Source: Owenweeksia sp.
Lineage (GTDB): Bacteria > Bacteroidota > Bacteroidia > Flavobacteriales > Schleiferiaceae
Assembly (NCBI GenBank): GCA_002695025.1
Contig: NZNV01000019.1
Location: 62,001-126,000, forward strand
DNA: 64,000 nt
Reading direction: 5' to 3'
The position numbers were made by a program, and so were the translations under genes. The first letter of the stretch is position 1. Each line of letters starts with the position of its first letter. Under the pieces are notes generated by a model. The model had not been told where the DNA came from, did not search any database, and worked only from the letters and a program-made list of their open reading frames with translations. Below, in pieces: positions 12,797 through 43,772 of the stretch.

Positions 12797-13217
12797 GGTC
12801 TAAGGTTTTAATGAATGAAGTTCGCCTACTCTATATGCTTTTCGGCTTCCGCAAAATCTCAGACCAAAGAAATAAGGAGGGGGCTTCCGGGTAAATACCA
12901 AATGAGACGGATATTTAATCCTTAGCAATACGTAGCGGGAGTATGCTAACAGAATGTTTCGAAGTGCCAGTCTGCAACAGGTAAAAGAAGCCAGGCTTTC
13001 CAAACCGTCCTCTTAAATCCGTCATCTATTTAAACTTAATCTCAAGGTATATACAGTAACACCAAGGCTAATATTCAGTGTTGATCACACCTAATCAATG
13101 TGTTTTCGGCTTCCACCTCAGAAATAAGGTTAACTGGAAAGAAAAATATAATGTGAGACATTTCTAACCCTTAAAAACCATGTCTCCTGATCTTCAGAAA
13201 ATCAATAGTAAAACGGG
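12797..13217. other. 421-base noncoding gap with a diverged duplicated element
   Basis: This gap lies between the barrel gene start and the metallophosphatase stop, both on the minus strand. It has no convincing gene: the one open frame (12800-13003, minus) has no family features and an improbable composition. Two related elements occur at 12839-12877 and 13103-13129, each running from TTTTCGGCTTCC to AGAAATAAGG, the second copy lacking part of the middle. No perfect TAnnTTTG box is present on the minus strand, so the barrel gene may depend on an activator. Confidence 0.5.
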
Positions 13218-31485: not shown

Positions 31486-32388
31486 ATGCTAAAGATTGCC
31501 TACGCCCCGGTTTACCATCACCCCTTACCTCCGGGGCACCGTTTTCCTATGGCCAAGTATTCTCTCTTGCCGGAGCAACTCATGTATGAGGGCACCTGTA
31601 CTAAGGAGAATTTTTTCGCTCCCGGCAAACTCACCGAGAAGCAGATCCTACGCACGCACGATGAACAGTATTGGAGTAAACTGAAGGCCTGCGGGCTCAG
31701 CCGGGCGGAGGAGCGAAAAACCGGCTTCCCCCTGTCTCCGGAACTGGTGGAAAGAGAGATCACTATTTGCCAGGGCACCCTTGACAATTGCCGGTATGCC
31801 AAACAATATGGCGTATCCATGAACATTGCGGGCGGAACTCACCATGCTTATACCGATCATGGTGAAGGCTTTTGCCTGCTGAACGACATTGCGCTGGCTT
31901 CGCATTGGTTACTGGATAAAGGTGAAGCTTCCCAAATACTGGTGGTAGATCTGGATGTACACCAGGGCAATGGTACCGCAAAGATCATGGAACATGAACC
32001 ACGCGTTTTCACCTTTTCCATGCATGGAGCGCACAATTATCCGCTCCACAAGGAAAAGTCAGACCTGGACATTGAGCTACCGGATGGAACCGGGGATGAG
32101 TACTATCTGCAGCAATTGCAAAATACCCTTCCCCGCCTGTTGGATGAAGTGGAGCCGGATTTTATCTTTTTCCAGAGCGGAGTGGATGTATTGAAAACCG
32201 ACAAGCTGGGCCGGCTTGGCCTCAGCCAGGAAGCTTGTAAGGAACGTGACCGAACGGTGTTTACCCTTTGTAAAAAGAACAACATTCCCGTAGCGGTGAA
32301 TATGGGCGGAGGGTATTCCGAACGCCTGGCTGACATTGTAGACGCCCACGCCAATACTTTCCGCCTGGCGCAGGAAATATGGTTTTAG
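31486..32388 (+). CDS. histone deacetylase family protein (acetyl-amine amidohydrolase)
   Basis: A 300-residue zinc hydrolase of the arginase/deacetylase fold. Start LKIAYAPVYHHPLPPGHRFPM matches the HDAC family beginning; NIAGGTHHAYTDHGEGFCLLND has the catalytic His pair, VVDLDVHQGNGTA the zinc Asp and His, FFQSGVDVL the next zinc Asp, and NMGGGYSE the last loop. Bacterial members deacetylate acetylated amines or lysines; the substrate here cannot be told. It stands between pheT and a convergent gene of unknown function, about 90 bases after pheT. Confidence 0.9.
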   Translation: MLKIAYAPVYHHPLPPGHRFPMAKYSLLPEQLMYEGTCTKENFFAPGKLTEKQILRTHDEQYWSKLKACGLSRAEERKTGFPLSPELVEREITICQGTLDNCRYAKQYGVSMNIAGGTHHAYTDHGEGFCLLNDIALASHWLLDKGEASQILVVDLDVHQGNGTAKIMEHEPRVFTFSMHGAHNYPLHKEKSDLDIELPDGTGDEYYLQQLQNTLPRLLDEVEPDFIFFQSGVDVLKTDKLGRLGLSQEACKERDRTVFTLCKKNNIPVAVNMGGGYSERLADIVDAHANTFRLAQEIWF

Positions 32389-32496
32389 AAAAAGACAGCG
32401 ATCTGTACTTCAGCTACGGTAACCTATTCCGCACAGTCCGGAATCCGGGCGCTTATGAATAGCTGGTAAGCCTGGACCTAGCCAGGAAGTTTATCC

Positions 32497-34707
32497 CTAA
32501 CGTGGTTTAGTGTAGAAATTAAGAATGGGGATATCCACTACCACAAAAACAGAATAGCGCACATAATGGTCGCTTACCGTACTCACTGTAGTCGCTGTAA
32601 CATCGTGAAGTTTTGGACCAATCTGAGCGCCTCCTCCAATGGAAAGTGGCATTTTATTTAAACCTACCACAAAAAAAGCTCCCGGGGAGACAATATCCTT
32701 CAACTCTATATCCGGTACACTCTCGGTTTCAGGATCATCAAAGCGAAAAGAAGCCAGCGCTCCCACATCTACAATAGATAGAAAAAGAGACAGGGAGGTG
32801 CCATTTTCCGGTTTACTTCTTACACTTGTACTTATGACTAATCCCACGGGGGCAGACAAACCAAAGGTAGGTTTGAATTTTGCCTCCCCGTTGATCTTCA
32901 TATTTTCATAACCGTAATGCAAACCTACGTAGCCATTTAGGGCTACATTAAAAGCGGTGTTCCGCTTGATGCGTGAACTTCCTGCCGGCAAGGCAGCTGC
33001 CTCAATGGCCTCCTGTACCTGTGCACTGTTTTCTGCCCTGGCCACTGTAGCCGCAAAATTTCCATACGTCCTTAAAAAATCTGAAATGCGCGACTGGTAC
33101 TCCGCATACTTCTTTTCATAGTCTTCTATATCCAGCGCTTCAAACTGTTTTTTCAGTGTATTGCGGTCGGAAGAATATCTTCCTACGATGGCTAATATGG
33201 AGTCCTGGAGTGGTTTGGAGATAGCGGCTTTCACTTCATAATTGCTGAGTAATTGTTTTAGGCCAGCTACATTTTCACCGTCCTTTATAGCTTTCTCAAA
33301 GGCATCTTCAAATTCTTCGCGCTGTGCAAGCACCGCCTGGGAAACCGCTTCACTGTGATCTTCTGCAGGTTTCACCACGTATTCCTGGTAAAGGCTTACC
33401 AATTCCGAAACAGCCGATGCATATCTCTTTTCATTGATGTCCACGTACATATCGCCAAGGGAATGGGTGAGCTTCAGAAAGCGGTCAAAGCCCAGCGGGA
33501 CTTTTTCACCTGACACAAGCTGGTAGGTTTTCTTCACGGTTTCCAGGAAGTTAAGGGAGGCCTGCATCAACTCATAAAAGTCCGTATAGTTAGCTTTCTG
33601 CCCTTGCTGCTGAAGATTAAGGATATAACTGAGTTTAACATCTATCTCCTTGCCTTCCTGAACCACCGGGCTAATCAAGGCTATAGCGGTATCACGGAAT
33701 TTTGAAAAATCCTGATTTCCTTTTTCCAGGAAGTCGAGCACCGGCCGGTTCCCAATCCGGAGTTGTTGATTATGTTCAATTTCAAACAACTCCAGTTGCT
33801 GATACAGGAGCCCCAGGTATAGCTTTAAGGTAACCTCATCTTTGAGTTCTGCAAAATCCTGGGATCTTACCCAATACGAACCGTTGGCGGGAGTATCATT
33901 TCGGAGCGACTGGGAAATGGTATTCAGAAGAGCAAGTGACGGATAGATATTGCTATTGATAGAATCCAGATGTGCCGGACTGGCTTCATAGCTTATGTAG
34001 CTATTCAGTGCATCTCCAATATGCTTATCATCGTTAAGCTGCATGACCAGGTATAAACCGTCCGACAAAATGATCCTCAATACCGGGTTCTGAGCAAACA
34101 CCTGATCCATACTCGGGTCTTGGATCAGCTGCCTGAGGTGCGGCAAAAGTGACGTAAGGTCTTGTTGAAACGCGGTACGTAGGGACTCCAGGTAAGCAGA
34201 GAATCGATAAATGTCATCCCCTATGGCTTCCAGCCTTTGGAAGGTAGAAGGGAATAGTATCTGCAATTGCCGTTGTGCTTCCAGTTGTTCTTTGAATTTT
34301 TCGAAGAAAGCTACCGACAATTCCTGCTTGGTCCGCTCTACGAGAAAACGGGCCAGACCGTCAGCGATGTGGGTTACATTAAAACCGGATAGGCCTCCCA
34401 ATGAAAAATCGCTGGGCACATTTGGCTGATCACTTGGTGCTATACTTTGACTTGCCGAATGTGATAATGCTATAAATGGATTATTCTCAAAATCCTTGGC
34501 AATCCCTTGATACGTTGAGTAGACAGAGTGATTTTTCAGTATATCCATTAAGGTGGCCGAGTCTTGCTGAAGAAACTGCACCTGACCTTCTGATAATCGG
34601 TGATCCAGGGTTCGCAAAGTCAATGCGTCTTTAAAAGCCAATTGGGGAAATACCGGCCCTGAAAATAGGCATACAGTAAAAATGAGCAGTAGTCTACAGG
34701 TTTTCAT
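32497..34707 (-). CDS. unrecognised exported protein: long helical region plus C-terminal barrel-like domain
   Basis: A 736-residue protein I cannot assign. It has a signal peptide (MKTCRLLLIFTVCLFSGPVF) without a lipobox. Residues about 25-575 are helix-rich with long charged and Leu-rich stretches (FEKFKEQLEAQRQLQIL, KLYLGLLYQQLELFEIEHNQQ, KKQFEALDIEDYEKKYAEYQ). From about 585 the character changes to Gly/aromatic strands (FNVALNGYVGLHYGYEN, FGLSAPVGLVISTSV, LSIGGGAQIGPKLHD, VRYSVFVVVDIPILNFY), which reads as a small outer-membrane barrel. The start overlaps the upstream subtilase gene by 14 bases, so the two are expressed together. A helical periplasmic part anchored by a barrel is the simplest model; function unknown. 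Confidence 0.6.
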   Translation of the reverse strand: MKTCRLLLIFTVCLFSGPVFPQLAFKDALTLRTLDHRLSEGQVQFLQQDSATLMDILKNHSVYSTYQGIAKDFENNPFIALSHSASQSIAPSDQPNVPSDFSLGGLSGFNVTHIADGLARFLVERTKQELSVAFFEKFKEQLEAQRQLQILFPSTFQRLEAIGDDIYRFSAYLESLRTAFQQDLTSLLPHLRQLIQDPSMDQVFAQNPVLRIILSDGLYLVMQLNDDKHIGDALNSYISYEASPAHLDSINSNIYPSLALLNTISQSLRNDTPANGSYWVRSQDFAELKDEVTLKLYLGLLYQQLELFEIEHNQQLRIGNRPVLDFLEKGNQDFSKFRDTAIALISPVVQEGKEIDVKLSYILNLQQQGQKANYTDFYELMQASLNFLETVKKTYQLVSGEKVPLGFDRFLKLTHSLGDMYVDINEKRYASAVSELVSLYQEYVVKPAEDHSEAVSQAVLAQREEFEDAFEKAIKDGENVAGLKQLLSNYEVKAAISKPLQDSILAIVGRYSSDRNTLKKQFEALDIEDYEKKYAEYQSRISDFLRTYGNFAATVARAENSAQVQEAIEAAALPAGSSRIKRNTAFNVALNGYVGLHYGYENMKINGEAKFKPTFGLSAPVGLVISTSVRSKPENGTSLSLFLSIVDVGALASFRFDDPETESVPDIELKDIVSPGAFFVVGLNKMPLSIGGGAQIGPKLHDVTATTVSTVSDHYVRYSVFVVVDIPILNFYTKPR

Positions 34708-35752
34708 AAGCTTTGATAGGGTTGATTATTAAATGACGGTCAGAGGTTACAGCGGGTGTTGCCGTATTTTGAAGTAAGGTTTTAAAGAAAAGCAAAGAGT
34801 AGTCAATATTCTTTTTTCTGCAGGCCTGGATAAGCAGAGCAAGCGAAGAAGCCACAAATGGTGTGGCCTGGCTTGTGCCAGACATCCTTTTGTAGGATGA
34901 CTCTTTGAAGGTAGAATAGATGTTCTCCCCGGGTGCCAAAAGGTCTATCCTGGAGGCTACTGAAGAATTGGCCTGAACAGCTTTAGTACGAGTAGACGCT
35001 CCAATGGCCAGTACATGATCAAAACCGGCCGGAAAGAGAATCCGATTACGGTCCGTCTCAAAATTACCCGCTGCACAAACTACTATAATGGATTTCTGAA
35101 CGGCAGCTTGAATACTTTCAAATAAGCGATCATCATGTTTTTCAAAACCTTTACTAATGGATAGTATATCTACATTTTTGGAAACGGCCCAATCTACTGC
35201 GTTAGCCAGTAATTTCGGATCATCACCCCATTCATTACTCGTTACTTTAGCCAAAAAAAGTTCGGACTGTGGTGCCATACCAAAAACCTCATTCTCATTA
35301 TGCTTTCCATTGATAATCCCGGCTAAGTGTGTTCCGTGGCCTTCGTGATCATCCACTCCAGCTTGTTGGCTTTGGGAGAAATCCGCTGTATTTTCTGAAC
35401 TTATATGCAGGTCCGGGTGATCGAGCTGTACACCCGAATCCAAAACGGCAATTTTCACTCCTTCTCCTTTAAGTTCAAGGTCCCACAGTTTATTGATCCC
35501 ATATTCCGTAATCCACCATGGTAACGATGCACTTGGCAAGCTCAATGATTCACTTGCCTCAAAATCACCGCTCCACAAGTAGTCTCCATTACCATCTTTG
35601 AACCATACATCATTACCTCCAATGGATTCACCATTTACGTCTTCCAATATGCTGACCTCAAAACCTGCGAAGATCCTCCCCTTCTTATAATTTGCAGCAC
35701 GCTCGGGGCGGCTGTACAGAAAAATATCAACGGGGGTCTTAAGCGTTCGCAT
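34694..35752 (-). CDS. subtilisin-like (S8) serine protease with N-terminal SH3-like domain, no signal peptide
   Basis: A 352-residue protease. Residues 17-65 (KKGRIFAGFEVSILEDVNGE...VWFKDGNGDYLWSG) look like a bacterial SH3-type domain. The S8 domain follows with the triad Asp105 (AVLDSGVQLDHPDL), His139 (EGHGTHLAGI) and Ser294 (SGTSQATPFVASS), and the oxyanion Asn in CAAGN. There is no signal peptide, no I9 propeptide and no type IX sorting tail, so a cytosolic location is likely unless it uses an unknown route. It overlaps the exported helical/barrel gene by 14 bases. A trypsin-fold protease gene lies 230 bases upstream on the same strand. Substrate unknown. Confidence 0.85.
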   Translation of the reverse strand: MRTLKTPVDIFLYSRPERAANYKKGRIFAGFEVSILEDVNGESIGGNDVWFKDGNGDYLWSGDFEASESLSLPSASLPWWITEYGINKLWDLELKGEGVKIAVLDSGVQLDHPDLHISSENTADFSQSQQAGVDDHEGHGTHLAGIINGKHNENEVFGMAPQSELFLAKVTSNEWGDDPKLLANAVDWAVSKNVDILSISKGFEKHDDRLFESIQAAVQKSIIVVCAAGNFETDRNRILFPAGFDHVLAIGASTRTKAVQANSSVASRIDLLAPGENIYSTFKESSYKRMSGTSQATPFVASSLALLIQACRKKNIDYSLLFFKTLLQNTATPAVTSDRHLIINPIKAYENL

Positions 35753-35858
35753 TTGTCAGATACATTTTAGGTGGACAATACGATTTTGCAGGTATGGTAT
35801 AAGCGAATTTCATGAAGGTTTGGTTTATTGCTAATTTATGAAATCAGAGCACGGGGCA

Positions 35859-35880
35859 GAATCACGGAATCTGGTGATTC
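35859..35880. other. seven-base stem-loop between the two protease genes
   Basis: GAATCAC and GTGATTC arms around an eight-base loop in the 230-base noncoding gap between the trypsin-fold and subtilase genes. There is no adjoining T run on the minus strand, so it may be an operator or leader hairpin for the subtilase operon rather than a terminator. The rest of the gap shows no gene. Confidence 0.4.
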
Positions 35881-35982
35881 ACGCTAACGTTTTTAGGCTA
35901 TATCGTTATCCCTTTAACGACCCCCCTTCCCCGAAACTTAAAAGTTCCAGTATTCCTGGTTGCCGCCAGCAGTCCACACAAA

Positions 35983-36579
35983 TTATGGTGCTTTGGGGTT
36001 GAGCCCGAAAGCAGCCACTACTTTGGCAATATTTACTCCCCAGGCTACACTCCCCTCGTTGTTACCCCAATAGTGTAATGCGTGTACCGTAAATGGAGGG
36101 ATCCAATCCAGCCATACTGTACCACTATCCCCGGGCAGGGAAACATTAGGCACACCCCTTAGGGTAACCGGGCCTTTTTTATACCCTTGCACCACCGCTT
36201 GCGTCCATAGTGAACTGGATCCCTTTTTGTACACGGGTAAGCCCTTGCTGAGCTTAGAGGAATCCAGTTTACCTATGGCGTAATTTTCAACTTTATACAC
36301 CTGCACATCCAGCCCGGAATTTTCGTCTATATGTACCAGGGAAGCATCAATAGCTTCGCTGGTATCTCCTACCGTACCCAGGTAAGAAAACTGACCCGGG
36401 GCAGTTTCTACTTCCACCCGGTCACCGAACTGACCTTTAACGGGATCGGTATTAAAACCGTACAACACATGATGATTGGTGAGCCCCACCTTTTGCTGGC
36501 CCCGAAGCACTACGATGCCTAATGTACCGGATGAACCGGTACGGGCATTACGGATACGCATACCACCACTTACTTTCAT
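35983..36579 (-). CDS. trypsin-fold serine protease without signal peptide
   Basis: A 198-residue chymotrypsin-type protease. The triad can be placed as His37 (LTNHHVLYG), Asp78 (AIDASLVHI) and Ser152 (LPGDSGTVW). The protein starts MKVSGGMRIRNARTGSSGTLG with no signal peptide or zymogen peptide and ends soon after the third strand set (WGVNIAKVVAAFGLNPKAP), so it is a minimal catalytic domain. It resembles the NAL1-like or stand-alone intracellular trypsin fold of bacteria rather than secreted trypsins. It begins nine bases after the LpxR-like gene stop, probably in one transcript. Substrate unknown. Confidence 0.8.
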   Translation of the reverse strand: MKVSGGMRIRNARTGSSGTLGIVVLRGQQKVGLTNHHVLYGFNTDPVKGQFGDRVEVETAPGQFSYLGTVGDTSEAIDASLVHIDENSGLDVQVYKVENYAIGKLDSSKLSKGLPVYKKGSSSLWTQAVVQGYKKGPVTLRGVPNVSLPGDSGTVWLDWIPPFTVHALHYWGNNEGSVAWGVNIAKVVAAFGLNPKAP

Positions 36580-36588
36580 ACTACCTTT

Positions 36589-37821
36589 TTAAAGTATCCA
36601 TCCAAAAGCAAGGGTTCCCCAACCGTGCGGCATGCCTCCTGACCTCTTGAACTCCCGCGTACGGGCTCCCAGACCGCCCCTTAAATAAGTAGTACGAAAA
36701 ATGATGTGAAGATTGGCATTCCAGAGAATAGTAAGGCGCTCAATATCCGATCCGCTTAAGGTATAAGGGTCGTCAGACCATGGCAGTCCCTGCAGGAGCG
36801 CGTTGTACCCCCATACATTGAGGTGTGCCTTGGCATCAAAGAAAACCTGGAAATCTCCCTTCTTACATTTTCCAATCTCATAAGAATCATAATTCACTCC
36901 ACCCACCTCATCTTTTTTTGCATTGTCCCGTTCAGCGCGACCTATATCCAGGGAAAACATACTGGGGATGGATTGTCCATCGGTATCAGGTGCTCTCCCA
37001 ATGACCAGGCCCAAGGTTCCCCGCGCACGGGTATAGGTACCCAGGGAAACCCCTCCACCCCAATACGGTGTAACCCAACGTTTAACAGGAGTTCCGCTTT
37101 CATTAAAAGCCCTGAGCAAAGGGCGGTAGGCAGTAGCCTCATAGGATGCGGATAACCCGAAGCCATTGCTCACCTGCTGATCCCAACCTTGAGGGTTAGG
37201 CCGGGCATCAGGGTCATTGATGCGTTGACCACTGTGAATGGCCGTTTGCACAAATTCCGCAATATGCAAACCCAGAATATCAAAGGTCAATGAAGTTTCC
37301 AGCATCCAGGGGCTGTTGGCACTACCGTACACCCGGCCGGTCCTTATAAAAAGCGTTGAAGCATAGGGCCGATCTGTAGTATCGGGCACTGCCAGGTCAA
37401 GGGCTTCCGGGGTAAAAGCACTTACCCCAAAACCAAAATTGGAACGGAATTTATCCAATTGTCCTTCTCGCTCGTCAGACAGAAAACGTTTGCCTCCCGT
37501 AAAAAGGGCTTGATCCACACCGGCCAGCAACCACGGAAAACCCAGTATCCTGGAATTGGTACCCGGTCCGAACCACTGAAGCTGGGCTCCCATGGTATAA
37601 TTGGCGTCACGGTTAGGTCCCGCTACGTTCAAAAAATCCTGGTCGGATGAAAATATAAAACCGGTGATCCCGCGCTCGGTATACGAAGAACCGTATCGTG
37701 AGATATTTTTATTGGAATTATTGTCAGCATTCCCATTGTTGGTAGTGGTAGGCTGGGCATACATATCCATCGTACCCAGCATTACGAGGCCGATGAGCTT
37801 CAGTTTAGTTTTCAATTTCAT
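36589..37821 (-). CDS. LpxR-like (DUF2219) outer-membrane barrel
   Basis: A 410-residue secreted barrel. The signal peptide (MKLKTKLKLIGLVMLGTMDMYAQ) is followed by an Asn-rich linker and then the LpxR pattern: FIFSSDQDFLNVAG, YTMGAQLQWFGPGTN, TTDRPYASTLFIRTG, VQTAIHSGQRI, PQGWDQQVSNGFGLSASYE. LpxR removes the 3'-acyloxyacyl chain of lipid A. The usual Asn-Asp active-site pair is not clearly conserved here (Ser-Asp-Gln-Asp instead), while the His of TAIHSG is present, so activity is uncertain. The start at 37821 gives the signal peptide; an upstream ATG adds nine residues. It lies between a multihaem cytochrome and the trypsin-fold gene. Confidence 0.7.
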   Translation of the reverse strand: MKLKTKLKLIGLVMLGTMDMYAQPTTTNNGNADNNSNKNISRYGSSYTERGITGFIFSSDQDFLNVAGPNRDANYTMGAQLQWFGPGTNSRILGFPWLLAGVDQALFTGGKRFLSDEREGQLDKFRSNFGFGVSAFTPEALDLAVPDTTDRPYASTLFIRTGRVYGSANSPWMLETSLTFDILGLHIAEFVQTAIHSGQRINDPDARPNPQGWDQQVSNGFGLSASYEATAYRPLLRAFNESGTPVKRWVTPYWGGGVSLGTYTRARGTLGLVIGRAPDTDGQSIPSMFSLDIGRAERDNAKKDEVGGVNYDSYEIGKCKKGDFQVFFDAKAHLNVWGYNALLQGLPWSDDPYTLSGSDIERLTILWNANLHIIFRTTYLRGGLGARTREFKRSGGMPHGWGTLAFGWIL

Positions 37822-37852
37822 GTTCTTTTGGTTGATTTGTATGAGCACTATT

Positions 37853-40531
37853 TTAAGGAATACTGGTTTCAGCCTGCCCGGTAACCAGTTTCCAGCCTTC
37901 TACCGGGGTGTTTTTGGTATTAAGGTGGCTGGCCAGGTAATACAGCCGCTGACCATCTTTTCCCTTAGCCGTATTAAATCGTTGATTAAGATAATACGGA
38001 GGAATGGATTGGTAATACAGGGTAGCTACAACTTTCCCTCCCTTGGCCTTTGCTGCGGGAATGTCGGTTTGGTACACTATGGCGTCCTGGCCTTTCCCGC
38101 TCATGTATAGTTCATCTCCCGTGGCCTTTCCGTGCGGATGTGTAGCTTCCACCATGTCCGGGTCCAGACCTTTGGGACCTTTAGGGGTCCATCCCTGTGG
38201 CAATAAACGGTTATCCTTCACCACCTTGGCAATAGCTACAAAACTGGTGGTAAACTGGCCTTCCCAGTTTTTGGTAAGTTCCTGGTAGATCTGCACCTGG
38301 TCCTGGCGGGTAATGATTTGGTAATGGGGTTCATACTGCTGGACACCTTGTTCATTGGGTGTAAGGAATTCCGAAGGAAGAGGCTGGCCTTTGGCATCCA
38401 CAACCACGCCTACACTATTGGTACGGCCTGAGGCCCACACTGTATCTCCATGCCTGTCTATCACCGCAAACTGCAGGAAAGCCCTTCTGAAGCCCACACC
38501 GGAAGGAAAACGATGCCCCACGAGGTTGGTGAGCTTAACCTGTGCCCGCAACTTACCTTTCTCATAATCCACCTTTTCGATCTCCACCTGTACACTGTGT
38601 TCCTTAGCCAGGCGATTGGACACCACTATGGCATTGCTCAAGCCGTAAAGCCCGGTCATGTAATCCTTTTTACGCACGCCCAACACATCGTCAAACTGGT
38701 TGAACATTTCCAGAGCGTACAAATTGATCCCCAGCAAGGTATGCCTGCGATAATCCTGGCGCGTTTCCAGGGTAATATCCCCAAGTGCCGCCAGGTGATC
38801 GGCCTCCGGATAATCCTGGTCCTGGATATTGGCGATCTTAAAAGCCAGCTCATTTTTAGCCTTAAAGGGATATTGAGAAGGCATGTGACAATCCTGACAG
38901 GTTTGCACATTACTGCCTTTAGGCTCATACTCGTTCTGAAAAGAGCTGTTCAACCATTCCAGGTAAGTGGCCTGTTCGTAATGGGTACCATGCTGGTTGC
39001 CTTCCGCATCAAAAACCGGAAGGTTAATGGTATGGCAGCTGCCGCACAGGCGGGATGATTTGGTGTACTTACTGTACACAGGCTTAATACCTAAGCCATT
39101 ATCCATAGCATGAATGGGAGGATTTTCAAAAGGCCCGTGTACTTCTCCGGGTGCTGACACTGCAAATTTCCCGGTTTCAATCTCTTTGAGGGATTTACCA
39201 TCATCAATGATCTGGTGGCAGCTCATACAAGAGATCCCATCACGGGCCAGGGCACCGTATTTATTATACGGTTTGGTCATATCATAACCATCCTTACCGG
39301 AGTGGTATACAATTTCTTCTTTAAAGAGTGAATCCGGAGAATTATAGTCGATATGGAACTGACGTTGCCCCATCACCCCATGACAGCTAAAACACAGGTT
39401 CTGAATAGTATTGGGTAGGTTTTTCTGGTTGTGAATGGCTTTTTCACTTTCCAGTTGTGCAAAGAAAATCGGATCACGACCGGCAAGCCCCATCATGGAC
39501 CAGCGCCATTCTCCATAAGGTGAAACATTCACCACTGAGTCTCCCTGTGCAGTGATCATATTGGGTAGGAAGGCACCACTCTGCCCATCATGGCAGGAAA
39601 TACACTGATCTGAAGTGAGGAACTGACCCGGGCCTTTCGGGCCGGAGATCACATGATCATAGGTTTCCGGGGGAAAACGGCTTACATCCTTTGCCGCTAC
39701 CGGCTTCATCTGGTGATAGGTCTGGAGAAAAGCTTCATTGATATACTCCTTCTGATCCTTCGCCTCATAACCTCCAACGGTCAATGCTTTAGCCAGTTTT
39801 TCATGGGCATCCTCATAACCGTTAAATTCATTGGTTTGCCAAGAGTTATCCACGTAATAGGAAATGGGCGTTCCGGGTTCCCCTTCAATATTGGACAGGC
39901 TACTGAAGGTAAATTCCTTTTCAGCAGAGGCATGGCAGCGGATACAATAATTACCAAAGCCGGAATTGGGGTAATCAAAAGGGTATTTATTAAGGGGATC
40001 AACCGGCTGACCCGGTGCATAATAACTCCAGAACCAACCATCCTTGGAGCCATTCTTATCCTTCACCATTACCGTCCATCCATCAAAGAGCTTTGCATCC
40101 TTATCATGAATGAGCTCACTCAACTCCTTCATAGTACTATGGGTATAGCGCTGCGCAGGAGCTGAATACATTACTTTTACAATCATGGCTCCGTCCGGGA
40201 TTTCCCCTTCCCGACCGTTCTTCAGCCACCTGATCACTTCCGGGGAGTAATAGATCACCACTGCGGGGTGAACACCGTACATCTGGCCGTTTACAAAAGG
40301 ACCGGTATTCCGTACACCTTTATCCCTCTTCCAGCCTAGTTTTTCGTACTCCAGCTTATCCAGGAAACTGTACAAAAGATCTTCGTATTGATCCAGGGGT
40401 AAAGTACTGGGTAGCGGAAGCGGGGATGGTCTCCCGGCATCGTTCCGCACATGATCATCAATTTTATAAAGTGAAAATCCTAATAGGAAAAGTGCGGTCA
40501 ATACCGCAAGGATCTTGATCGGGCGCATCAT
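37853..40531 (-). CDS. six-haem c-type cytochrome with N-terminal P460-like domain
   Basis: An 892-residue exported or membrane-anchored cytochrome; the N-terminal hydrophobic segment (KILAVLTALFLLGFSLY) is a signal or anchor. CxxCH haem motifs lie at about residues 196 (CIRCH), 310 (CISCH), 380 (CFSCH), 435 (CMSCH), 496 (CGSCH) and 545 (CQDCH). Residues 40-200 look like a cytochrome P460-type domain (GPFVNGQMYGVHPAVVIYYS, KDGWFWSYYAPGQ) ending in the first haem. The C-terminal third (LTNLVGHRFPSGVGFRRAFL) is a beta-sandwich as in other multihaem cytochromes. It could oxidise or reduce small nitrogen or sulphur compounds, but the substrate is not inferable. The LpxR-like gene follows 31 bases later. 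Confidence 0.85.
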   Translation of the reverse strand: MMRPIKILAVLTALFLLGFSLYKIDDHVRNDAGRPSPLPLPSTLPLDQYEDLLYSFLDKLEYEKLGWKRDKGVRNTGPFVNGQMYGVHPAVVIYYSPEVIRWLKNGREGEIPDGAMIVKVMYSAPAQRYTHSTMKELSELIHDKDAKLFDGWTVMVKDKNGSKDGWFWSYYAPGQPVDPLNKYPFDYPNSGFGNYCIRCHASAEKEFTFSSLSNIEGEPGTPISYYVDNSWQTNEFNGYEDAHEKLAKALTVGGYEAKDQKEYINEAFLQTYHQMKPVAAKDVSRFPPETYDHVISGPKGPGQFLTSDQCISCHDGQSGAFLPNMITAQGDSVVNVSPYGEWRWSMMGLAGRDPIFFAQLESEKAIHNQKNLPNTIQNLCFSCHGVMGQRQFHIDYNSPDSLFKEEIVYHSGKDGYDMTKPYNKYGALARDGISCMSCHQIIDDGKSLKEIETGKFAVSAPGEVHGPFENPPIHAMDNGLGIKPVYSKYTKSSRLCGSCHTINLPVFDAEGNQHGTHYEQATYLEWLNSSFQNEYEPKGSNVQTCQDCHMPSQYPFKAKNELAFKIANIQDQDYPEADHLAALGDITLETRQDYRRHTLLGINLYALEMFNQFDDVLGVRKKDYMTGLYGLSNAIVVSNRLAKEHSVQVEIEKVDYEKGKLRAQVKLTNLVGHRFPSGVGFRRAFLQFAVIDRHGDTVWASGRTNSVGVVVDAKGQPLPSEFLTPNEQGVQQYEPHYQIITRQDQVQIYQELTKNWEGQFTTSFVAIAKVVKDNRLLPQGWTPKGPKGLDPDMVEATHPHGKATGDELYMSGKGQDAIVYQTDIPAAKAKGGKVVATLYYQSIPPYYLNQRFNTAKGKDGQRLYYLASHLNTKNTPVEGWKLVTGQAETSIP

Positions 40532-40661
40532 GGTAAAGTTTGGTTTAATTGGTGATACCAATTTAAAACAATTCCTTTACAAGGCGGAGAAAATCAACTA
40601 AATAGACAGGATTATTGCTTGAGTGAAAGGCTTTACCCAACGGTGGTACGGACCAGCGTTA

Positions 40662-42401
40662 TTATTTGGACGGTGATAAGGTTTCTTCCGGAAGGTCACT
40701 GATGCGTATGTACATAAAGCCATCCAAAGAGTCATTGAAAAGCGGATCTACATTGAAACAGACAATACGGGCATTCTGCTTGATGTATTTTTTGATCAGC
40801 ACCGGAAAACGCATATCTCCCGGTTCCAGGTCTTCGATGAGGCGGTCGAATTTATTGAGATCGTCATCACTGCTCTCAAACACCACATCCTTATGTTCAT
40901 CCTTGAGTTTAGGCTTGAAGGGTTTACGCGGACGTATATGCTCCGCCATTTCCGGATCACCGTGATGGGTAGTGAGATATTCCACCATAAGGGATTTACT
41001 GAAACGCGAAAACTTATTGCTGATGCTGGCGCAGCCCGTTATAAATTCCAATTCCGGATGACGTTTCAGCACCAGGATAATACCCCGCCATAAAAGAAAA
41101 AGCGGCAAAGGCTTCAGCTGCTGCTCACGAGTAATAAAGGCCCGCCCCATTTCCAGTGACTTTGCGAATACATCGTGCATATAATCGTCTACCCTGAAAA
41201 GGGTGGTTACGTAAAAGCCCTTTACCCCGTACCTTGTATAAATATCACTACCTATTCCAAGGCGATAAGAACCCGCCAGCTTGCGGCTTTCCTTATCCCA
41301 GAGTATAAGGTGCTCGTAATGATAGTCATAGGTATCCAGGTCCAGAGGAAGGTTAGTTCCCTCACCAATAGCGCGGAAGGTTAGTTCGCGAAGGCGACCT
41401 ATTTCTGTGAGAAGATTGGAGATGCGCCTGGACGGGGCAATAAAAAGCTCATAATTCTTTTGTTCAAAAAGAAAGGCATTGGTAGAGCGCAGAGCTTCCA
41501 ACTCAGCCTCCAGGATCTCCGTAGCCACCGGGGCAATGATATCCTTAGGTTCATCCGGTCGCTTTAAGGAAAAAAGCTTTTTTTCGGGCGACAAGGCCTG
41601 CCTCAGTAAATACGTTCGCTGCCGGAGAAAAGCACCGTAATGCTCCGGTGTTTTATAACCATTTTGCTCCTTTACCGGAATGGCCCGGCCAATACGTATG
41701 CGAATGGACTTATTCTTCTGATGTAGCAGTTCCGATGGAAGTTTAGCCGTACGCAGGTTGGGATGCAAGGCGGAAAGGAGGTAAAAGAAGGCACTGTTGC
41801 GCGCCTTGAAATAAACCGGTATTACCGGTACTTCCATCTTCCGGATCATCTTGATGGCACTTTCCTCCCAGGGTTTGTCAGAGATCTTCCCTTCTTCAAA
41901 TTTATAGGTGCTTACCTCCCCGGCCGGAAATATCCCTAATGGGTGTCCTGCTTTTACATGCTCCATGCTGTCCTTGATCCCGGTAAAACTGGAGCGTATA
42001 TCTTTATTGTCAAAGGGATTTACCGGCATGATAAATTCCTTGAGGGGCTCTACCTTTTGCAACAGGAAGTTGGCCATCACCTTATAGTCGGGGCGCACCT
42101 GGCTGATAAGCTTAATGAGGATGATACCGTCAATGCCTCCAAGCGGGTGATTGGAAATGGTTATAAAGGGGCCTTCTTTGGGAATGCGCCTGAGCTCTTC
42201 TTCGTAATAATCAAAAGTTACCTTGAATTCCTTGAGAATAGCATCGATGAATTCCACTCCGTGCAGCTCTTCAAACTTGCTGTACACTTCGTTGATATCC
42301 GAAATACGGAGGATATCCATGATGGGTTTGGCCAGGCCTGAAAGGCCAATTTTGTCCAGTTGAACTACTTTGGCAATATCACTTTTGTTAACCAGGCTCA
42401 C
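40662..42401 (-). CDS. fused lysophospholipid acyltransferase / GNAT N-acyltransferase, OlsF-like
   Basis: A 579-residue two-domain enzyme. Residues 80-260 are a PlsC-type O-acyltransferase with SNHPLGGIDG, FPAGEVSTYKFEEG and VIPVYFKARNS. Residues 310-510 are a hemolysin/OlsB-type N-acyltransferase with LLTEIGRLRELTFRAIGEG, YDYHYEHLILWDKES and AGSYRLGIGSDIYTRYG. In OlsF the C-terminal domain acylates the amino group of ornithine (or a related amino acid) and the N-terminal domain adds the second acyl chain, giving an ornithine or glycine lipid. Translation starts at GTG 42401; a TAG lies nine codons upstream with no ATG between. The lysC gene ends 42 bases upstream. Confidence 0.85.
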   Translation of the reverse strand: MSLVNKSDIAKVVQLDKIGLSGLAKPIMDILRISDINEVYSKFEELHGVEFIDAILKEFKVTFDYYEEELRRIPKEGPFITISNHPLGGIDGIILIKLISQVRPDYKVMANFLLQKVEPLKEFIMPVNPFDNKDIRSSFTGIKDSMEHVKAGHPLGIFPAGEVSTYKFEEGKISDKPWEESAIKMIRKMEVPVIPVYFKARNSAFFYLLSALHPNLRTAKLPSELLHQKNKSIRIRIGRAIPVKEQNGYKTPEHYGAFLRQRTYLLRQALSPEKKLFSLKRPDEPKDIIAPVATEILEAELEALRSTNAFLFEQKNYELFIAPSRRISNLLTEIGRLRELTFRAIGEGTNLPLDLDTYDYHYEHLILWDKESRKLAGSYRLGIGSDIYTRYGVKGFYVTTLFRVDDYMHDVFAKSLEMGRAFITREQQLKPLPLFLLWRGIILVLKRHPELEFITGCASISNKFSRFSKSLMVEYLTTHHGDPEMAEHIRPRKPFKPKLKDEHKDVVFESSDDDLNKFDRLIEDLEPGDMRFPVLIKKYIKQNARIVCFNVDPLFNDSLDGFMYIRISDLPEETLSPSK

Positions 42402-42443
42402 TACTCTGCGGCATTTTCCGTAAAGCTAACCATTTTAAATGGC

Positions 42444-43694
42444 TTAAACCGTTATTACCTGGTAGGTATTGCGGCTAATTTGTTCCAACATTATTTTCCC
42501 GGTACGTTGAACGCGGGTACGGGCCTCATCATCATAATGCCTTACGCTGTAAAGCTTTACATCCTCATTATAGGACACATCAAAATCCTTTTGCAATTCA
42601 TCCAGGATCACCGGAGTGGTAATAGGATCATGGTTAATACAAAAGGAAGAACTTACCGCTGTGTTCTGCGACAGGTTAACACGGATGCCATACTGGTGAA
42701 ACACCTTGTAGATCTTGCTCAGGTGTTCTTCCACAATAAAAGCCAGGTCACGGGTGGAAACGGTAATGAGCACCTGGTTATCTTTTTTGATGAAACAAGG
42801 CAATACCGGGTCCAGATCTGAACCTTCGCGGATAAGCGTACCCACCGCATCCGGGTTTACAAATGACTTCACCCGAAGGGGTATATTCTTTTTTTGTAAA
42901 GGTTGTATGGTTTTGGGATGGATTACGGAAGCTCCGTAATAAGCCAGCTCAATGGCCTCACGGTAACTGATCTGGTTCAGGAGGGCGGTTCCGTCAAACA
43001 CTTTCGGGTCACCATTCAGCACTCCAGGTACATCCTTCCAGATCACCACCTCTTCCGCACCCAGCACATAGCCGAGGACCGAAGCCGTGTAATCGGAACC
43101 TTCACGCCCCAGGGTGGTGGGGTTCAGGTCATCATCAGACCCGATAAAACCCTGAACCACATAGCGGTTATCCGGTAATATGGTATCTTTCACCAAACGC
43201 TCCGTAAAGTTCCAGTCTACCCGCGCAAAACGGTAGTTCTGATCGGTGCGGATCAACCTGCGGGCATCCAGCCACTTATTCTGATACCCGGAGCTGTTGA
43301 GGTAGCTGGAAATTATCTTGGTAGAGATCAGTTCCCCATAACTTACGATCTGATCATAGGCCTTATTAAAGTTTTCATCCGGTTTACCCTGGCAAATGAT
43401 ATCCAGCTGGCTGAAGAGGATCTCCACATCATTATGAACACGGTGTTCATCCGCAGCAAAGAGTTCCCGTATGATGTTGAGGTGGTCCTCTTTGATTTCC
43501 TGTAATAGCTCCAGGGCTCCCTCCTTTCCGTTAAAAAAGAGCTGCACCACCTTTTCCAGCGCATTGGTGGTTTTCCCCATAGCCGAAACTACAATTAGTA
43601 TTTCCTCACCAGGGAAGTGATTCAAAACGTTAGCTACATTACGTACACTGTCTGCATCCTTAACGGAAGCACCACCAAATTTAAATACCTTCAT
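42444..43694 (-). CDS. lysC: aspartate kinase
   Basis: First step of the aspartate pathway to lysine, threonine and methionine. The 416-residue protein starts MKVFKFGGASVKDADSVRNV, with IVVSAMGKTTNALE, SYGELISTKIISSYL, GREGSDYTASVLGYVLGAEE and WKDVPGVLNGDP as kinase blocks, and a C-terminal ACT region (QVLITVSTRDLAFIVEEHL). It is the monofunctional form. An upstream ATG at 43766 would add 24 non-conserved residues and is not used. The divergent gene upstream has a strong promoter close by. lysA lies 4 kb further on. Confidence 0.94.
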   Translation of the reverse strand: MKVFKFGGASVKDADSVRNVANVLNHFPGEEILIVVSAMGKTTNALEKVVQLFFNGKEGALELLQEIKEDHLNIIRELFAADEHRVHNDVEILFSQLDIICQGKPDENFNKAYDQIVSYGELISTKIISSYLNSSGYQNKWLDARRLIRTDQNYRFARVDWNFTERLVKDTILPDNRYVVQGFIGSDDDLNPTTLGREGSDYTASVLGYVLGAEEVVIWKDVPGVLNGDPKVFDGTALLNQISYREAIELAYYGASVIHPKTIQPLQKKNIPLRVKSFVNPDAVGTLIREGSDLDPVLPCFIKKDNQVLITVSTRDLAFIVEEHLSKIYKVFHQYGIRVNLSQNTAVSSSFCINHDPITTPVILDELQKDFDVSYNEDVKLYSVRHYDDEARTRVQRTGKIMLEQISRNTYQVITV

Positions 43695-43772
43695 TGTGTA
43701 TAAACTTACAGTTTGCGAATGTACTAAGCATCGCTTAATATAATACTCCCGTTTGGCTTTACCCATTTGGCA

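What the first reader, a model, noticed from the sequence alone, without database searches (positions are those of the whole stretch)
32497..36579. Two signal-less serine proteases of different folds beside an exported helical/barrel protein
Seen: a minimal trypsin-fold protease (H37/D78/S152) and an SH3-plus-subtilisin protease (D105/H139/S294), both without signal peptide or propeptide, on one strand, and the subtilase overlaps by 14 bases an unrecognised 736-residue exported protein with a long helical region and a barrel-like end. Known: secreted subtilases of this phylum normally carry a signal peptide, a propeptide and often a type IX sorting tail. Inference: an intracellular protease pair working with an envelope protein could be a proteolytic signalling, processing or defence module. 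I know no described system with this composition. This is the best candidate for something new in the window.
Basis: partly seen in the sequence, partly recalled or inferred. Interest (0 to 1): 0.62.

Follow-up and report, generated by a model that had tools for sequence, protein, structure and literature searches.

The report
Two-membrane module with swappable hydrolases
The two unusual proteases and the large exported protein belong to a recurrent, apparently undescribed gene set in which an inner-membrane protein and a probable outer-membrane barrel protein are kept together while the enzyme between them is swapped, which looks like an envelope-spanning switch or delivery device for destructive enzymes.

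Summary
Window 32497-36579 (- strand) holds a 198-aa trypsin-like protease and a 352-aa SH3-like/S8 subtilase, both without signal peptide, and a 736-aa exported protein. With an LpxR gene they form a four-gene accessory insert (32497-37848) that a same-genus genome lacks. The 736-aa protein has relatives in 23 of 395 class genomes (profile) and is modelled as a long helical region plus a barrel, moderately OmpX/OmpA-like. In its main clade it ends an operon: three-TM inner-membrane protein (IM), hydrolase, barrel protein. The hydrolase is exchanged (mostly S8; also papain, trypsin, GH25; without IM caspase, M48, DUF900, patatin), and one N-terminal SH3-like domain recurs on S8, trypsin, DUF900 and, weakly, GH25 enzymes. 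Hydrolases beside IM lack signal peptides (0 of 23 loci); without adjacent IM, 7 of 11 have one. IM and barrel distances correlate; S8 distances with neither. The window's IM homologue lies on another contig. I infer an envelope-spanning platform that positions and switches a swappable hydrolase, perhaps for defence or self-killing. The module is well supported; its function is inferred. No description was found in nine searches of open-access papers.

The parts
32497..34707 (-). 736-aa exported protein (probable OM-anchored barrel protein with long helical part, predicted periplasmic)
   Evidence: ORF; family of relatives; signal peptide by inspection and invariant Q22
32500..32997 (-). C-terminal barrel-like domain, residues 571-736, about eight strands
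   Evidence: AlphaFold2 with 46 sequences, pLDDT 80.1; VIA-align to OmpX Z 5.2, OmpA 5.1, NspA 5.0, below the clear-match level
33031..34638 (-). helical region, residues 24-559
   Evidence: model; no convincing PDB fold in the chains compared
34694..35752 (-). SH3-like + subtilase (S8) protease, 352 aa, no signal peptide, no propeptide
   Evidence: PF00082 1.5e-45; triad; closest solved chains by sequence are intracellular serine proteases 7y6m and 7xr8
35531..35752 (-). N-terminal SH3-like domain shared with trypsin-, DUF900- and (weakly) GH25-type enzymes of other loci
   Evidence: HMM of 13 relatives, window S8 E 3.5e-10, residues 26-69
35983..36579 (-). 198-aa trypsin-like protease, no signal peptide
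   Evidence: motifs H37/D78/S152; Trypsin_2 below cut-off; motif-aligned with tails of IM proteins L025, L071, L078
36589..37848 (-). LpxR-family outer-membrane protein gene; same accessory insert (ATG start possible at 37821)
   Evidence: PF09982 2.1e-24; absent from the same slot in same-genus G003 and G004

Best explanation
The locus is one version of a modular two-membrane system. Supported by sequence: a three-TM inner-membrane protein (IM, N-out/C-in by charge) and an exported barrel protein recur together with an exchangeable hydrolase encoded between them, often carrying a common SH3-like N-terminal domain. Inferred: the barrel domain anchors the 736-aa protein in the outer membrane; its roughly 530-residue helical part reaches through the periplasm to the periplasmic loop of IM; IM holds or gates the hydrolase at the cytoplasmic face, through the SH3-like domain or by direct fusion. 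A signal at the outer membrane (phage adsorption, envelope attack or damage) would release or activate the hydrolase, which then cleaves its targets as a self-limiting or defensive response. In versions without IM the hydrolase is often itself exported and can meet the helical part directly. In this genome LpxR and a second, trypsin-like protease lie with the S8-barrel pair, and IM is encoded elsewhere.
For: Co-occurrence: barrel-protein family in 23 of 395 class genomes, IM in 35 of 395, both in 14 where about 2 are expected, Fisher p 5.7e-11. Operon order IM-S8-barrel with gaps from -83 to 93 bases (898-902 where a GH25 gene intervenes) in 19 tabulated loci. S8 label checked on the catalytic part or by Pfam for these (L201 is just below the Pfam cut-off, 20.1 vs 21.8). 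Exchange of the enzyme beside the barrel family: S8, papain, caspase, trypsin, M48, DUF900, GH25 above Pfam cut-offs, patatin at the cut-off. One SH3-like domain on S8, trypsin, DUF900 and, weakly, GH25 enzymes. Signal peptide: 0 of 23 loci with IM adjacent versus 7 of 11 without, Fisher p 6e-5 (explicit hydropathy rule plus inspection). IM topology by charge in all 44 sequences, of 80, that could be scored. Trypsin-like tail at the predicted cytosolic end of IM in L025, L071, L078, by motif. Distances: IM-barrel r 0.28 (21 of 5000 permutations as high), IM-S8 r 0.14 (583), S8-barrel r 0.11 (657). The own-genome IM and the window barrel protein both have Fulvivirga imtechensis (L183) as nearest of 19 loci, 47% and 41%, where the trio is contiguous.
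Against: Same-genus G003 keeps the syntenic IM but has no barrel-protein match, so IM is not strictly tied to it here; 21 of the 35 IM-bearing class genomes have no barrel-family match, and 12 of 49 distinct barrel-family loci show no recognised enzyme in the operon. The barrel assignment is moderate (Z about 5; soluble lipoprotein barrels score 3.5-4.1; no Foldseek match at E <= 0.001). The IM tails called trypsin-like are not Pfam-supported (none for L025 and L078, below cut-off for L071). Peptidoglycan-acting partners (GH25, CHAP, amidase) fit an enzyme that reaches the periplasm at least as well as one that stays in the cytosol. No regulator or NTPase is seen in the insert. The PADLOC comparison of flanks shows no convincing defence-island signal. 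Distance and co-occurrence tests are not corrected for relatedness of the genomes.
Confidence: 0.42

Rival explanations
1. A dedicated export or display device: IM and the barrel protein move signal-less hydrolases, tagged by the SH3-like domain, to the periplasm or cell surface.
For: Where IM is adjacent the enzymes lack signal peptides (0 of 23 loci), elsewhere 7 of 11 have one, so all may end in the same compartment; several partners act on peptidoglycan (GH25, CHAP and NlpC/P60 with PG-binding domain, amidase); bacterial SH3 domains often bind cell wall (recalled).
Against: IM has three TMs and no ATPase domain was seen in it; trypsin-like tails lie at its predicted cytosolic end; an 8-stranded barrel has no pore wide enough for folded enzymes (general knowledge).
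Confidence: 0.25
2. Ordinary envelope maintenance: a site-specific processing or quality-control protease set for outer-membrane proteins.
For: Exported and membrane parts, LpxR beside the barrel gene in the window and in L031, no clear defence-island signal.
Against: Patchy distribution (1 of 88 genomes in its own family), accessory slot and replacement of the enzyme by esterases, muramidases and a patatin do not look like housekeeping with one substrate.
Confidence: 0.18
3. A lysis or particle-release cassette comparable to holin-endolysin-spanin (type 10 secretion): IM opens the inner membrane, the enzymes break wall and outer membrane.
For: Signal-less wall hydrolases beside IM; in L034 phage-like sheath and tube genes begin 2.6 kb after a barrel-patatin pair.
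Against: IM is mostly 300-520 aa with conserved cytosolic and periplasmic parts, unlike holins (size of holins recalled); 5 of 37 enzyme-bearing barrel loci show a recognised wall hydrolase; no relatives of the window barrel protein or of the own IM in the phage collection.
Confidence: 0.1

Closest known systems
NTP-dependent conflict systems with multiple peptidases and EAD-recruited effectors (Kaur et al. 2020, PMC7159879, System 3; I read section 32 and found passages)
   Same: Trypsin-like and S8 peptidases together; lysozyme- and papain-type effectors recruited through a shared small domain
   Different: Core there is a NucA nuclease with EAD1/STAND; here no nuclease or NTPase was found in the insert and the fixed partners are membrane proteins; 'outer membrane', 'inner membrane' and 'barrel' are not found in the main text held
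Nuclease-protease pairs of Hachiman, AVAST and canu (PMC12799240; I saw the outline with abstract and opening)
   Same: Trypsin-like or caspase proteases reused as modules in different contexts
   Different: Their partner is a proenzyme nuclease; none found here
IetAS (PADLOC IetS subtilase)
   Same: Signal-less subtilase in a small accessory operon (recalled for IetAS); weak IetS match, E 2.5e-9
   Different: No ATPase partner among the genes scanned; partner is an exported protein
Intracellular serine proteases / subtilisins (PDB 7y6m, 7xr8)
   Same: Closest solved relatives of the catalytic domain by sequence
   Different: SH3-like N-terminal domain and operon with membrane proteins
OmpA/OmpX/NspA-type 8-stranded barrels
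   Same: C-terminal domain resembles them moderately
   Different: Preceded by a helical region of over 500 residues; sequence family not matched in Pfam

Membership tests
Peptidase S8 (subtilases) | Pfam profile above cut-off and D/H/S triad | tested here: met
   156.2 bits vs 21.8; D105/H139/S294
Type VII mycosin (TIGR03921) | equivalog cut-off | tested here: not met
   166 bits vs 278.75
Secreted Bacteroidota subtilases | N-terminal signal peptide and propeptide | tested here: not met
   First possible start gives the SH3-like domain, then a mature-type subtilisin start
Secreted Bacteroidota subtilases | type IX sorting tail | not tested
   the protein ends 19 residues after the S8 domain match; no T9SS profile was listed by Pfam or NCBIfam at E 1
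Trypsin (PA clan) | Pfam profile above cut-off | tested here: not met
   Trypsin_2 16.3 bits vs 27.6; so filed only as trypsin-like
Trypsin (PA clan) | H/D/S triad in trypsin order with GDSG | tested here: met
   H37, D78, S152 in PGDSG
LpxR | Pfam profile above cut-off | tested here: met
   86.5 bits vs 26
OmpA/OmpX-type outer-membrane barrel | 8-stranded barrel fold | tested here: inconclusive
   Z 5.0-5.2 to OmpX, OmpA, NspA; no Foldseek match at E <= 0.001
OmpA/OmpX-type outer-membrane barrel | location in the outer membrane | not testable with these tools
   needs fractionation
IetAS | IetA ATPase beside the subtilase | tested here: not met
   no ATPase among the eight genes of 31486-43766 scanned with Pfam
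Kaur System 3 | NucA-type nuclease core | tested here: not met
   no nuclease among the same eight genes
Anti-phage defence system | clusters with known defence genes | tested here: inconclusive
   141 families over 118 flank proteins vs 17 over 120 controls, nearly all shown rows with one member; the number of proteins hit is not reported
Anti-phage defence system | protects cells from phage | not testable with these tools
   needs an experiment
Type 10 secretion | holin activity of the membrane component | not testable with these tools
   needs an experiment

The most novel reading that the evidence does not exclude
A bacterial 'death receptor' that spans both membranes: an outer-membrane barrel protein senses an external event and, through a helical periplasmic arm and an inner-membrane platform, switches on a cytosolic hydrolase chosen from a swappable set docked by a common SH3-like domain.
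Probability: 0.27. Interest if true: 0.88.

Novelty: categorically new. Interest (0 to 1): 0.66.

Why it matters
The systems with swappable effectors that I know of sense mainly inside the cell (recalled). A two-membrane unit that keeps its membrane parts and swaps the destructive enzyme would be a different architecture. The IM family reaches beyond Bacteroidota (Acidobacteriaceae, Sphingomonas and Nitrosomonas contigs; Rhizobium, Caballeronia and Nostoc plasmids), so the question is testable in culturable, harmless bacteria. At the least, protein families without annotation (IM, the barrel protein, the SH3-like adaptor) gain a defined genomic context.

Tried and rejected
No relatives of the 736-aa protein in plasmids, phages or viral contigs, and none by its own short patterns in genome contigs; these searches reach close relatives only, and the family was found by whole-genome search. 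Stonustoxin, Cir/Yir, DnaK, dCTPase, TipC and designed-bundle hits of the 736-aa protein are weak and lie in the helical part; I take them as noise. Foldseek on two models gave nothing at E <= 0.001; VIA rows for the helical region are unrelated long-helix proteins, and families not listed there are not excluded. A STAND NTPase in the 1215-aa neighbour of L134 was dropped: weak hit (0.012) and no G....GK[ST] motif in it or its two homologues. The exported proteins of L133/L134 do not match the 736 family by profile. BLASTP of the window trypsin against the L071 IM is not significant (E 0.47). Promoter and terminator scans of 32300-38200 are at chance level (5 vs 8.2 expected, 7 vs 6.3), so co-transcription across 35753-35982 stays open. 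Papers: nine searches (open-access PMC only, listings seen); passages of PMC12419801 and PMC8195603, passages and one section of PMC7159879, outline of PMC12799240; none describes this composition. From the first-stage text I did not adopt 'protease pair' as the core, nor 'defence' as shown.

Corrections made on recount: an earlier tally of 25 IM-bearing loci included two whose only enzyme is a tail of IM (L071, L078); they are now left out, giving 23. Two proteins labelled S8 by sequence search (L245, L246) match only through the SH3-like domain and are trypsin-like.
Full report
What is in the window. Searches confirm the three genes, their coordinates, the 14-base overlap, the catalytic residues and the absence of signal peptides on both proteases. 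The S8 protein is a sure subtilase; its N-terminal 74 residues or so are SH3-like and run straight into a mature-type subtilisin start, so there is no propeptide. The SH3 name rests on the sequence pattern and one weak Pfam hit on a relative (E 0.06). The trypsin-like assignment of the 198-aa protein is weaker (Pfam below cut-off). The 736-aa protein has a signal peptide (by inspection), and no library named it.

The unit is an accessory insert. In same-genus G003 the genes pheT and HDAC on one side and the cytochrome, the OlsF-like gene and aspartokinase on the other are in place, but LpxR, trypsin, S8 and the 736-aa gene are replaced by four small unrelated genes; in same-genus G004 HDAC lies next to aspartokinase; in family members G018, G022 and G013 one other gene lies between HDAC and the OlsF-like gene, while in the remaining four genomes compared (G025, G002, G001, G021) the flanks are arranged differently or cut by the contig end. 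So 32497-37848 is a four-gene insert in a variable slot; the cytochrome is not part of it. Of 88 family genomes only the window's own has the 736-aa protein.

The 736-aa protein is a real family. A single-sequence search found it in 15 of 395 phylum genomes, a 15-row profile in 23 of 395 class genomes, both counts including the window's own. A model from 46 sequences has mean pLDDT 80: helices to residue 582, then about eight strands (584-735). Structure comparison of residues 571-727 gives OmpX, OmpA, NspA, OpcA, Ail, PagL and OprF at Z 4.5-5.2, with soluble neisserial lipoprotein barrels at 3.5-4.1; helical proteins without relation score up to 5.8 against the helical part. I take an outer-membrane barrel as likely, not proven.

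Its neighbours. In the first 14 related loci and 20 more the gene is often preceded by a hydrolase and, before that, by a membrane protein beginning like LDVxIGLxFxYLLYSL and ending GAPFWFDLLxKL. This protein (IM) has no Pfam or PDB match above threshold. Its charge pattern gives N-out, C-in. A scan of named genomes kept the best 80 of 527 IM relatives (biased towards the query). Of these 80, 16 contain the barrel family: 15 by the operon walk, plus L243. In 15 of the 16 an S8 gene directly precedes it; in L179 (same contig as L068) it is an SH3-trypsin. By hand count, at least 37 of the 80 IM loci have a nameable hydrolase next to IM or in its operon: S8, GH25, SH3-trypsin, papain, metallophosphoesterase, DUF900, amidohydrolase, patatin, a below-cut-off alpha/beta hydrolase, and single cases of YdjC, GDSL and M19 that may be chance. 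On annotated plasmids six of eleven matching records were opened: IM ('hypothetical protein') precedes an amidase in Hymenobacter (followed by S8) and Caballeronia and follows a patatin in Rhizobium; in the other three no hydrolase directly adjoins it in the same direction (that gene table is incomplete).

Exchange through a common domain. A profile of the first 72 residues of 13 S8 proteins hits the trypsin-like enzymes of L068/L179, L245 and L246, the DUF900 enzyme of L248, GH25 enzymes of five loci, a stand-alone 79-aa gene in L072, and the window S8 (E 3.5e-10). The GH25 matches are weak (E 4e-5 to 2.4e-4) and cover part of the domain. Trypsin_2 is above cut-off for L068 only; L245 is below, L246 was not run. 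In L025, L071 and L078 IM carries a tail with trypsin-like motifs; Pfam gives no trypsin match for L025 and L078 and a below-cut-off one for L071. Beside the barrel family, M48 is above cut-off in L037 and below in L035 and L076; the L034 patatin is at the cut-off (27.6 vs 27.7).

Location rule. Counted: loci with a separate hydrolase in the operon. Dropped: duplicates L179 and L208, L071 and L078 (enzyme only as IM tail), L035 (IM a 75-aa fragment, M48 with an apparent signal peptide), L069 (caspase on the other strand) and the loci without recognised enzyme. The L036 trypsin is upstream by about 420 bases and was kept. With IM adjacent none of 23 has a signal peptide; without, 7 of 11 have one (L032, L033, L036, L037, L076, L086, L087) and 4 do not (window, L034, L070, L072); Fisher p 6e-5. 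The L033 call (score 1.98) is the weakest of the seven; the window trypsin scores 1.74, from an internal strand.

Constant and variable parts. Over 19 IM-S8-barrel loci, IM and barrel distances correlate (r 0.28, 21 of 5000 permutations as high), S8 with neither. Shared descent of the host genomes is not removed from this test. IM and barrel occur in the same class genomes far more than by chance (14 vs 2 expected), again without correction for relatedness.

The window's own IM. It is a single gene on contig C7, next to a malate-dehydrogenase-like gene (by inspection), and syntenic in G003, which lacks the barrel protein. IM is found in 6 of 88 family genomes, the barrel family in 1. Its nearest relative among the 19 loci is that of Fulvivirga imtechensis, as for the window barrel protein. 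I read this as a split module, but the G003 result means IM may also have a role of its own.

Mechanism. I favour an envelope-spanning platform that controls a cytosolic enzyme; the main rival is export of the enzyme. The data so far do not separate them: the IM tails and the charge topology favour the first, the wall-acting enzymes the second. A defence role is suggested by patchy distribution, the slot, enzyme exchange and an enzyme set like that of published conflict systems. Flanks show no clear defence island: of the 141 PADLOC families matched by 118 flank proteins the 25 shown are mostly type I restriction models, which I take to come from the L031 locus, with PDC-S02, ShosA, mad and type IIG models beside them; 120 control proteins matched 17 families, mostly type II methyltransferases; the number of proteins hit is not given in either.

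Novelty. Nine paper searches (listed under Tried and rejected) in an open-access library found no description; subscription papers and preprints are not covered.

Noticed in passing
L031:7868-8785 and window 36589-37848: LpxR genes lie by the barrel-protein gene in two unrelated genomes (in the window two genes upstream on the same strand, in L031 directly convergent). Two of 35 loci; may be chance.
   Followed up: partly
L034:8523-18230: Phage-like tail sheath (PF17482/PF04984) and tube (PF06841) genes begin 2.6 kb after a barrel-family gene and a patatin gene, resembling an extracellular contractile injection cluster.
   Followed up: partly
L068:4362-7943, L072:3229-6747, L134:9357-13001: A 1170-1215-aa protein with about ten predicted TMs (one weak sCache-like hit) recurs in these operons; possible extra sensor.
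   Followed up: partly
L133:3843-5311, L134:6575-8023, L229: IM operons with a different third partner: a 96-aa protein plus a 380-390-aa exported protein (weak OmpA/DUF6268 hits for L133); possibly another outer-membrane part.
   Followed up: partly
L204, L200, L217 (after IM): A further exported family of 400-440 aa with a 118-140-aa protein follows IM in these genomes.
   Followed up: no
L137, L141, L142, L143, L146, L152, L256: IM homologues of a more distant group are paired with amidohydrolase-like enzymes (Pfam run on L137 only).
   Followed up: partly
L074:3890-5839: The barrel-protein gene is split by an in-frame stop; degraded copy or sequencing error.
   Followed up: no
window 12823-12855 (-): DUF805b RNA (RF02914) above gathering score.
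   Followed up: no
window 32389-42443: The interval between HDAC and the OlsF-like/aspartokinase genes is a variable slot, with different genes in the five relatives that keep both flanks (G003, G004, G013, G018, G022).
   Followed up: partly
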